The notes under the pieces: model-generated
What the model was told of the DNA's origin: nothing
Database searches by the model: none
Seen by the model: the letters and a program-made list of their open reading frames with translations, nothing else
Source of the DNA: Burkholderia sp. Bp8992
Lineage (GTDB): Bacteria; Pseudomonadota; Gammaproteobacteria; Burkholderiales; Burkholderiaceae
DNA: 64,000 nt
NCBI RefSeq assembly: GCF_003853705.1
Contig: NZ_QTQI01000010.1
Span: forward strand, 1 to 64,000
Reading direction: 5' to 3'
Shown: in pieces, positions 25,813-28,831 of the stretch
Layout of the letters: each line of letters starts with the position of its first letter
How positions within the stretch are numbered: the first letter of the stretch is position 1
Position numbers and translations under genes: made by a program

Positions 25813-26640
25813 TCAACGCTGGCAGGTCGGACAGAAATAGGTCGACCGCTGGCCCTGCACTATCTGGCGGATCGGCGTGCCGCACACACGGCACGGCTGG
25901 CCCGCCCGGTCGTAGACGAAGCAGTCGAGCTGGAAATAGCCGCTTTCGCCGTTGCTGCCGACAAAATCGCGCAACGTGCTGCCGCCGCGCTCGATCGCGT
26001 CGGCCAGCGTCGCACGCACGGCGTCGGCCAGCCGCTCGTAGCGCGGCAGCGAGACCTTGCCGGCGGCCGTCGTCGGCCGGATGCCGGCGCGAAACAGGCT
26101 CTCCGACGCATAGATGTTGCCGACGCCGACGACCATGTCGCCCGCGAGCAGCGCCTGCTTGACCGACACCGTGCGGCCGCGCGTGCGCGCGTGCAGCAGC
26201 GCGCCGGTGAACGCGGGCGAGAACGGCTCGACGCCGAGGCTCGCGAGGAGCGGGTGCGCATGCACGTCGCCCGCTTCGCGCGGGTGCCACAGCACGGCGC
26301 CGAAGCGGCGCGGATCGCGGAACCGCAGCACGAATTCGTCGAAGATCCAGTCGATGTGGTCGTGCTTCGCGGCGACCGGCACGCCGGCCGCGGGCAGCAC
26401 GCGCAGCGTGCCCGTCATGCCGAGATGGACGATGAACCAGCCGGCATCGACCTCGAACAGCAGATACTTGCCGCGACGCTCGACGGCGAGCACCTCGCGC
26501 GCGCGCAACTGCTCGGCGAACTCCGCCGGCACGGGCCAGCGCAGCATCGCGGTTCGGACGTCGACACGCTCGACGCGGCGGCCCGCGACAAAGGGCTCGA
26601 TGCCCCGGCGCGTGACTTCGACTTCTGGCAACTCTGGCAT
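25813..26640 (-). CDS. mutM: Formamidopyrimidine-DNA glycosylase
   Basis: This 275-residue glycosylase/AP lyase excises 8-oxoguanine and ring-opened purines. It starts [17 protein letters not shown], with catalytic Pro2 and Glu3. The helix-two-turn-helix region [13 protein letters not shown] is clear, and a C-terminal zinc finger has C-x2-C and C-x2-C (CRVCGTP...FCPTCQR). The ATG is at 26638-26640. The nested palindromic element begins only 19 bp upstream, so the native promoter is either inside it or displaced beyond it. Confidence 0.97.
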
Positions 26641-26659
26641 GTTTTGGTGGTCTGAACCG

Positions 26660-26943
26660 AGGGTCTGTTTACATGTGGAACGCGCATGCGTTGCCACGAG
26701 AACGGCCGCTCGCGAGGCGCGCGACGCCGCGAATACAGACATATTCGCAAGGAGCGCAACGCGGCGAGCGGTCGTTCTCGTGGCAACCCCAAATTAAAAA
26801 AATCATGTCACGGGAATGCCCGAAATCGCCCGCCTGGCGGCGTCGCTCGTCGCTTGTTTGGCTCGCCAAACGGCGCTCCTCGCTTCTTGCCAGGCGGGCG
26901 ATTTCGGGCATTCGCATGTGCGTTCCACATGTAAACAGACCCT
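26660..26943. repeat. 284-bp nested palindromic element (candidate MITE or REP-like repeat)
   Basis: The outer arms are 31-bp inverted repeats with one mismatch (26660-26690 and 26913-26943), beginning AGGGTCTGTTTACATGTGGA on each strand. Inside are two long hairpins. The first spans 26690-26787, with 24-bp arms (one mismatch) at 26690-26713 and 26764-26787 and an inner GCGAATA/TATTCGC. The second spans 26814-26913, with perfect 25-bp arms at 26814-26838 and 26889-26913 and an inner TTTGGC-TCG-CCAAA region. They are joined by an A-rich 26-base linker. The whole can fold as a three-way junction on either strand. No target-site duplication and no transposase are seen. It fills the divergent spacer between mutM and the TPR gene. 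Confidence 0.9.
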
Positions 26944-27007
26944 ATCACGATCGTGCCTGTATTGTAGCGAGCGCGTTACAATCGGTTGAAACATCGAACG
27001 GATTTCC

Positions 27008-28831
27008 ATGACTCTGCCCTCGAAGCTGCTTCAGAAGCGCCCCGCCGCCGTGCGCGGCGTGCACGCCTTCCCGGTCCGACGTGCGCTCGGCGCCGCGCTG
27101 TTTGCCGCCTGGACCCTCACCGCCTTCCCGGCCCACGCGCAGGATCCGGCATCGGACGACGCGGAGCCGCAGGGCGCGTTCGAGCATGTGATGCCGGACG
27201 AGCAGAAGAATCTCCCCGGTGTGCCGCTGACGAGCCAGATCGTCTACCAGGTGCTCGCCGCCGAGGTCGCGCTCCAGCGCAACCAGCCGGCGCCGGCCTA
27301 CCAGACCTACCTCGCGCTTGCCCGCGATACGCGCGATCCGCGCATGGCGCAGCGCGCGACCGAGATCGCGCTCGGCGCGCAGAGCCCGGCCGACGCGCTG
27401 TCCGCCGCGAACCTGTGGCGCCAGTACGCGCCGGACTCGAACCGGGCGTCGCAGGTCGATGCCGCGCTGCTGGTGCTCGCCGGCAAGCCGGCCGACGCGC
27501 AGCCAATGCTCGCGCGCGAGCTGGCCCGCGCGACCGGCGAGACGCGCGGCCCGGCGATCCTCGCGCTGCAGGCGCTGCTCGTGCGCGGCTCCGACCGCGT
27601 CGGCGGCCTCGCGGTGCTGAAGGACATGCTGAAAAGCGACATGAACCGGCCCGAGGCGCAGCTCGCGATCGCACGGCAACAGCTCGCGGTCGACGACAAG
27701 GACGGCGCCGCGCAGTCGCTGAAGCAGGCGCTGGCGCTGCGCCCCGACTACCTGCCGGCGGCGCTGATGCTGTCACAGATGGGCCCGGCGGAACGCGCGG
27801 CCGGCATCGCGTCGTTCGAGAAGTATGTTCAGCAGAATCCGAAGTCGCGCGATGCGCGGCTGGCGCTGTCGCAGCTGTATCTCGCCGACGATCGCCTCGA
27901 CGACGCGCAGAAGCAGTTCGAGACGATGCGCAAGCTCGACGCGAAGGATCCGACGCCGCTGATGGCGCTCGCGCTGATCAAGATCCAGCAGAAGAAACTC
28001 GACGAGGCGACCGGCTACCTGAAGCAGTACGTGCAGCTCGGCGACAAGCAGCCGAACCTCGACGTCGGCCAGGGCTACATCTACCTCGCGCAGATCGCGA
28101 TCGACCAGAACAACGACGCGCAGGCGTCGCAGTGGCTCGACAAGGTCGACCAGACGAGCCAGCACTACCTGCCCGCGCAAATCACGCGCGCGCAGCTGCT
28201 GCAGAAACAGGGCAAGACCGACGAGGCGCGCAAGGTGCTCGACAACCTGCCGATCTCGGATCCGCGCGACGCGGCCGTGGTCGCACGCACGGACGCGTCG
28301 ATCCTGTTCACGGCGAAGCGCTATCCGGAAGCGGAAGCGCGCCTCGGGCAAGCCGTCCAGGACTTCCCGGACGATCCCGACCTGCGCTACGACTACGCGA
28401 TGGCGGCCGAAAAGACCGGCCACTACACGACGATGGAAAAGCAGTTGCGCGAACTGATTCGCACGCAGCCCGACAACCCGCAGGCGTACAACGCGCTCGG
28501 CTATTCGCTGGCCGACCGCAACCAGCGCCTGCCGGAGGCCAGCAAGCTGATCGACAAGGCGATGGCGCTCGCGCCGAACGACGCGTACATCATGGACAGC
28601 CTCGGCTGGGTGAAGTACCGGATGGGCGACACGGCCGGCGCGACGAAGGTCCTGCGGCGCGCGTACGAACTGCAGCCGAACGCCGAAATCGGCGCGCACC
28701 TCGGCGAAGTGCTGTGGAAGAGCGGCGCGCAGGACGACGCGCGTACCGCGTGGCGCGACGCGCAGAAGCTCGAACCCGACAACGACACGCTCGTGCAGAC
28801 GCTGAAGCGCCTCCAGGTCAACGGCCTCTGA
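27008..28831 (+). CDS. Tetratricopeptide repeat protein, exported
   Basis: This 607-residue protein has an N-terminal signal peptide (about residues 1-45, ending FPAHAQ) and many TPR-like helical hairpins through most of its length. A clear TPR run lies near the C-terminus (NPQAYNALGYSLADRNQRLPEASKLIDKAMALAPND). TPR proteins are scaffolds; the neighbouring lolB suggests a link to the cell envelope, but the partner is unknown. The ATG at 27008 lies 65 bp right of the palindromic element, with TACAAT as a possible -10 around 26977. Its stop overlaps the lolB ATG by one base. Confidence 0.85.
   Translation: MTLPSKLLQKRPAAVRGVHAFPVRRALGAALFAAWTLTAFPAHAQDPASDDAEPQGAFEHVMPDEQKNLPGVPLTSQIVYQVLAAEVALQRNQPAPAYQTYLALARDTRDPRMAQRATEIALGAQSPADALSAANLWRQYAPDSNRASQVDAALLVLAGKPADAQPMLARELARATGETRGPAILALQALLVRGSDRVGGLAVLKDMLKSDMNRPEAQLAIARQQLAVDDKDGAAQSLKQALALRPDYLPAALMLSQMGPAERAAGIASFEKYVQQNPKSRDARLALSQLYLADDRLDDAQKQFETMRKLDAKDPTPLMALALIKIQQKKLDEATGYLKQYVQLGDKQPNLDVGQGYIYLAQIAIDQNNDAQASQWLDKVDQTSQHYLPAQITRAQLLQKQGKTDEARKVLDNLPISDPRDAAVVARTDASILFTAKRYPEAEARLGQAVQDFPDDPDLRYDYAMAAEKTGHYTTMEKQLRELIRTQPDNPQAYNALGYSLADRNQRLPEASKLIDKAMALAPNDAYIMDSLGWVKYRMGDTAGATKVLRRAYELQPNAEIGAHLGEVLWKSGAQDDARTAWRDAQKLEPDNDTLVQTLKRLQVNGL

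What the first reader, a model, noticed from the sequence alone, without database searches (positions are those of the whole stretch)
26660..26943. Nested three-hairpin palindromic element between mutM and a TPR gene
Two 31-bp outer inverted arms (one mismatch) enclose two further long hairpins with 24-bp and 25-bp arms, joined by an A-rich linker, so the whole 284 bp folds into a three-way junction. It has no coding capacity and no target-site duplication, and it sits 19 bp from the mutM start codon. Clean arms around two internal palindromes look like a non-autonomous mobile repeat or a recombination/structural element rather than a terminator. Its place means mutM-mutY expression may come through or from the element. 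In-frame stretches inside it can give spurious hypothetical proteins.
Basis: partly seen in the sequence, partly recalled or inferred. Interest (0 to 1): 0.78.

Follow-up and report, generated by a model that had tools for sequence, protein, structure and literature searches.

The report
Hairpin-carrying jumping DNA beside mutM
A 282-base stretch next to a DNA-repair gene is one copy of a small gene-less jumping element whose paired, oddly bulged hairpins turn up in many bacteria and seem to be related to the Correia repeats of Neisseria.

Summary
In detail: 26660-26943 is an outer stem with two long inner hairpins, far beyond chance. The mobile-repeat reading holds: 37 of 61 sampled genomes match, and the mutM site is empty in 36 of 51 examined. 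"No target duplication" is wrong for the family: at a second site 26 empty and 4 filled alleles show exact insertion into CTAG with a TA duplication. In the window the left TA is now GA. The ends match an IS5-family insertion sequence, so trans-mobilisation is likely but not shown. New: hairpin 1 carries a conserved bulged apex, and hairpin 2 is a weaker inverted copy. A model of that unit matches 95 of 321 class-level and 52 of 249 phylum-level genomes. Of 76 such loci, 67 lie inside inverted arms, 59 spanning 260-278 bp, against 0 of 66 control positions. Terminal repeats differ by lineage. The unit also matches all 16 short Correia elements tested, though an earlier model matched none. Arms co-vary without G-U preference, pointing to DNA-level palindrome upkeep.

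The parts
26661..26942 (.). element proper (GGGTCTG...CAGACCC), 282 bp
   Evidence: ends set by the empty/filled comparison at another site; copies
26659..26660 (.). left target dinucleotide, GA here, TA in several orthologous copies
26943..26944 (.). right target dinucleotide TA
26660..26689 (+). left terminal arm, pairs with 26914-26943
26914..26943 (+). right terminal arm
26690..26787 (+). hairpin 1
26704..26772 (+). conserved bulged unit in hairpin 1
   Evidence: model R2, 74.6 bits, E 7e-17
26788..26813 (+). A-rich linker
26814..26913 (+). hairpin 2
26830..26898 (-). inverted, weaker copy of the unit in hairpin 2
   Evidence: model R2, 22.9 bits, E 0.0017; the next window match is E 0.099
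25813..26640 (-). mutM (Fpg), start codon 19 bp from the element
27008..28831 (+). divergent TPR-repeat gene
   Evidence: TPR models match, all below their cut-offs

Best explanation
A non-autonomous transposon (MITE type) that inserted into a TA target between two divergent genes; insertion into CTAG with TA duplication is shown at another site. It was most likely moved in trans by an IS5-family DDE transposase that recognises the GGGTCTGTTTACAT end (inferred). It belongs to a family found across Pseudomonadota whose shared part is not the ends but an internal unit: a hairpin with conserved bulges, often present as two inverted copies, inside lineage-specific terminal repeats about 270 bp apart (shown by model search and arm detection). 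The arms stay complementary while their sequence changes. Transversion pairs, no preference for G-U and inverted apices suggest arm-to-arm correction and inversion of the palindrome at DNA level (inferred). At mutM it most likely acts as a structured leader, with any transcript through it a candidate RNase III substrate as reported for Correia elements (inferred from literature; not tested).
For: Copies in 37 of 61 genomes. mutM site: 36 empty, 7 full-length, 1 cut by a contig end, 6 short variant, 1 unreadable of 51. Second site: 26 empty, 4 filled of 30, TA duplicated. Ends shared with an IS5-family element. Arms co-vary: 273 double-changed cells against 68 shuffled and 11-29 slid. G-T 18, A-C 50 cells. 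Unit in 95 of 321 and 52 of 249 genomes. 67 of 76 loci inside inverted arms against 0 of 66 controls. Second unit on the opposite strand in 41 of 76 (counted by hand). Inverted apices in L122, L123.
Against: No transposition was observed. Close relatives of the matching transposase are in 13 of 61 genomes and mostly not in the copy-rich ones. At the mutM site itself the empty alleles lack a TA at the junction, so the exact target there cannot be read. 27 of 80 copies lack a TA at one or both ends; 34 of the 67 armed loci lack a mirrored TA by my rule. The unit loci were found with structure models and 52 of the 76 had a row in the alignment or came from the same search, so the covariation is partly selected. 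Across genera G-U (57) exceeds A-C (37), which leaves room for RNA selection.
Confidence: 0.78

Rival explanations
1. A conserved structured RNA (leader or sRNA) that spread by copying; selection on the RNA fold keeps the pairs.
For: Very stable fold; strong covariation; conserved bulges; G-U 57 against A-C 37 in the cross-genus apex alignment.
Against: In the family itself G-T (18) is rarer than A-C (50); transversion double changes at one orthologous site; apices occur inverted; no Rfam family reached its gathering score; empty sites with a TA duplication.
Confidence: 0.12
2. A single-strand-hairpin mobile element (works like attC or REP/IS200-type DNA), with the folded unit read by an unknown recombinase.
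For: Variable stems with conserved bulges resemble sites read as folded single strands (recalled); none of 13 IS5-family loci (9 places) carries the unit.
Against: TA duplication on insertion and ends equal to those of a DDE insertion sequence.
Confidence: 0.07
3. The match to Correia elements and to distant genomes is convergence of GC-rich hairpins rather than common descent.
For: Model R1 finds no Correia element (0 matches); 15 of 24 long Correia cores are not matched and 9 only at E 0.026-0.13; E-values are rough, and R2 gives 20 window matches at E<=10 where 10 are expected.
Against: All 16 short Correia cores in the 34 loci are ranks 2-17; two non-Neisseria loci (L401, L411) have intermediate apices; arms at a constant span around the unit were not part of the model.
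Confidence: 0.25

Closest known systems
Correia repeat enclosed element (CREE, NEMIS) of Neisseria
   Same: Small, gene-less, palindromic, TA at the ends of the copies read, same layout CAAGGCG-hairpin-CAAGG...CAACGC; inversion and RNase III cleavage reported in the literature (passages)
   Different: About 104 or 155 bp with one unit instead of about 280 bp with two; different terminal repeat; AT-rich arms
Bacterial MITEs in general
   Same: Terminal inverted repeats, target duplication, no gene, many copies
   Different: Here the inside is conserved across a phylum while the ends vary
IS5-family insertion sequence with TAGGGTCTGTTTACAT ends (G007)
   Same: About 14 terminal bases and TA flanks
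   Different: 830 bp with a transposase; no hairpin unit
REPIN (paired inverted REP) of the RAYT system (recalled)
   Same: Two inverted hairpins forming one mobile unit
   Different: Far larger, with terminal repeats and a TA duplication; no RAYT search was made

Membership tests
MITE (non-autonomous DNA transposon) | Terminal inverted repeats, no transposase gene, multi-copy | tested here: met
MITE (non-autonomous DNA transposon) | Empty sites and target duplication | tested here: met
   53 of 80 copies keep TA at both ends
MITE (non-autonomous DNA transposon) | Mobilised by a related transposase | not testable with these tools
   an IS5-family element shares the ends; movement needs an experiment
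Correia element (CREE) | CREE terminal repeat TATAGTGGATTAA | tested here: not met
   terminal repeat here is GGGTCTGTTTACAT; so this is not a CREE, at most a relative
Correia element (CREE) | Shared internal unit | tested here: inconclusive
   R2 matches 16 of 16 short cores, E 7e-5 to 8e-4, and 9 of 24 long ones weakly; R1 matches none
Rfam RNA families | Match above gathering score | tested here: not met
   two microRNA models far below their cut-offs
REPIN / RAYT system | Linked RAYT transposase | not tested
   no RAYT search was made
Intrinsic terminator | GC-rich stem followed by T tract | tested here: not met
   one weak match against 0.8 expected

The most novel reading that the evidence does not exclude
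A phylum-wide lineage of gene-less mobile elements whose conserved core is a pair of inverted bulged hairpins, not the ends. Different lineages have put on different terminal repeats to use different IS5-type transposases, and Correia elements are a reduced one-hairpin branch. The hairpin unit must then do something of its own, for instance recruit a host factor for end synapsis or protect the palindrome.
Probability: 0.5. Interest if true: 0.87.

Novelty: new variant of a known kind. Interest (0 to 1): 0.74.

Why it matters
MITEs are usually defined by their ends, with the inside treated as filler. Here the inside is conserved across a phylum sample while the ends differ, which gives a testable candidate function. 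It also offers possible relatives for Correia elements; a 2009 paper calls the Correia repeat found only in Neisseria and its mobiliser undetermined (PMC2649163, passages read). The co-varying arms also warn that covariation in long DNA palindromes need not mean a functional RNA.

Tried and rejected
Chance palindrome: rejected. Terminator: one match against 0.8 expected. Single-copy regulatory RNA: rejected by copy number and empty sites. IS630/Tc1-mariner parent (first idea from the TA flank): PF13358 found in 3 of 12 copy-rich genomes; not pursued once an IS5-family end matched. Pairs of ends 1.4 kb apart in G026 as the autonomous element: they hold an IS110-family gene inside hairpin 2. Contact between the two apices (crossing complementarity): conserved but without covariation, and partly explained by hairpin 2 being an inverted unit. 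A 27-bp extra hairpin in some copies as part of the fold: it sits at different places and orientations, so it looks like an insertion. Phage records and one pattern scan of viral contigs: no match. Plasmid-record searches with elements of other lineages: no match in 4 of 6; Azotobacter partial, Variovorax 94% of the query. Annotated contexts H1-H3 list no features. Rough gene context of 28 copies with a home-made ORF rule: 13 codirectional, 6 divergent, 0 convergent, 6 overlapping a predicted ORF, 3 at an edge; not relied on. Conserved IS5-like genes in 12 genomes as the mobiliser: the two 133-aa and 147-aa ones lack matching ends. Literature: ten searches, listings seen; five papers opened for passages only (PMC5688073, PMC4603805, PMC10969869, PMC4853749, PMC2649163). 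None of what I saw describes this element; only open-licence papers are held, so this is weak evidence of absence.

Full report
What is there. The stretch 26660-26943 is an outer stem (31 bp, one G-T) enclosing two hairpins with 24-bp and 25-bp arms. As RNA it folds at -199.7 kcal/mol, z -19; 149 random pieces of the window reach -179.5 at best, and no other perfect inverted repeat in the window exceeds 16 bp. It lies between mutM (minus strand, Fpg equivalog) and a divergent TPR gene, 19 bp from the mutM start codon.

It is a mobile repeat. A nucleotide search finds it in 37 of 61 sampled genomes (3 of 25 genera; most hits in the nearest genus), with up to 38 matches in one genome. Of 84 full-length rows 80 are distinct; 53 have TA at both ends (22 in CTAG, 15 in TTAA), 13 at one end, 14 at neither. 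At the mutM site I examined 51 genomes besides the window, of 61 searched: 36 are empty, 7 carry a full-length copy (252-312 bp), one a copy cut by a contig end, 6 a shorter variant at the same place, and one could not be read. At a second site (L085) 26 of 30 loci are empty (CACTAGGGG) and 4 are filled (CACTA[...]TAGGGG), so the element enters CTAG and duplicates TA exactly. At the mutM site the empty sequence differs by a few bases from the filled flanks and has no TA at the junction, so the target there cannot be read exactly.

Likely mobiliser. The end TAGGGTCTGTTTACA (one mismatch allowed) occurs in 42 of 61 genomes. Two pairs of ends about 830 bp apart in G007 enclose an IS5-family gene (PF13340 and PF01609). 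Close relatives of its protein are in 13 of 61 genomes; of the copy-rich genomes only G013 and G016 are among them, with partial matches. IS5-type genes occur in all 12 copy-rich genomes tested, but few show a similar end nearby. Trans-mobilisation is therefore inferred.

Arms change together. On the window plus 30 representative copies of two subfamilies, found by blastn, 95.0% of 2405 cells pair and 273 cells are changed on both sides, against a shuffled mean of 68 and 11-29 for slid partners. At the orthologous mutM site 8 copies show double changes, transversions among them. G-T cells number 18 and A-C cells 50, so wobble is not favoured; in the cross-genus apex alignment it is 57 against 37. 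Two copies (L122, L123) hold the hairpin 1 apex inverted inside an unchanged stem. I read this as palindrome arms correcting and inverting each other at DNA level; a role for RNA structure is not excluded.

A conserved unit inside. Subfamilies A and B differ in stems and linker, but their apices agree (consensus 41 of 50 and 48 of 51 positions; linker 12 of 25). A model of hairpin 1 (R1) matches 56 of 300 genomes of the order, 35 of 134 genera. Those loci share an apex CAAGGCG-n5-CGC, small hairpin, CAAG-n5-CAACGC, while their stems differ. A model of this unit (R2; covariation, partly selected because the loci came from a structure model) matches the window's hairpin 1 at 74.6 bits and hairpin 2 on the opposite strand at 22.9 bits, E 0.0017; the remaining 18 window matches begin at E 0.099. 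The element is thus best read as two inverted units inside terminal repeats.

How wide. At E<=1e-5 R2 matches 95 of 321 genomes of the class (77 of 243 genera) and 52 of 249 of the phylum sample (33 of 132 genera; 32 of the 52 outside the class); the two samples share some genomes. E-values are rough, and the number of places scored per genome is capped. An independent check is anatomy that the model does not contain: of 76 loci (57 from the order search, 19 from the class search) 67 lie inside inverted arms, 59 with spans of 260-278 bp and 33 with a mirrored TA, against 0 of 66 random positions in the longer loci. In 41 of 76 a second unit lies on the opposite strand, 104-136 bp away start to start (counted by hand). 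Named records with R2 matches, 6 of 6 tested: Burkholderia cenocepacia, B. stagnalis, B. arboris, Paraburkholderia sprentiae, Caballeronia sp., Azotobacter chroococcum; a Variovorax paradoxus record matches by nucleotide search. None of 13 IS5-family loci (9 places) carries a unit.

Correia elements. A pattern recalled from memory found Neisseria records, read. R1 matches none in 34 loci. R2, built without Neisseria and without two Correia-like loci, places all 16 short Correia cores of those 34 loci at ranks 2-17, E 7e-5 to 8e-4; of 24 long or other cores 9 appear at E 0.026-0.13 and 15 not at all. Common descent is likely, not proven. [quoted passage not shown] a review reports promoters, inversion and RNase III cleavage (PMC10969869, passages). 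These make a leader role at mutM plausible; nothing here tests it.

Verdict. The new result is a conserved hairpin unit, often paired, shared over a phylum sample under changing ends. Nothing seen in ten literature searches of open papers describes it.

Noticed in passing
L031, L032 (G026): Two copies of the element carry an IS110-family transposase gene inside hairpin 2 at the same place, so the hairpin is a landing site.
   Followed up: partly
L018, L019, L046, L047, L049, L050, L108, L112, L116, L119, L122, L123, L138: A 27-bp hairpin-like insert sits in hairpin 2 at different places and orientations in both subfamilies; it may be a small mobile repeat of its own.
   Followed up: partly
L211:1450-1893, L222:1345-1746 and the corresponding places: All 12 genomes tested hold two short IS5-transposase-like genes (N-terminal part only, about 133 and 147 aa) some 26-28 kb apart on opposite strands; NF033580 matches below cut-off. 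They look vertically kept.
   Followed up: partly
L269:1577-1645 (Neisseria sicca): The best R2 match in the Neisseria loci (38.4 bits) is not a Correia core, so another carrier of the unit may exist there.
   Followed up: no
L041 against L105 and L113: At what looks like one orthologous site (flank identity 69-74%) the element lies in opposite orientations.
   Followed up: partly
L055, L058, L059, L060, L063, L067: A shorter variant, about 160 bp, with a changed end (ACGGTCTG) occupies the mutM site in six genomes.
   Followed up: no
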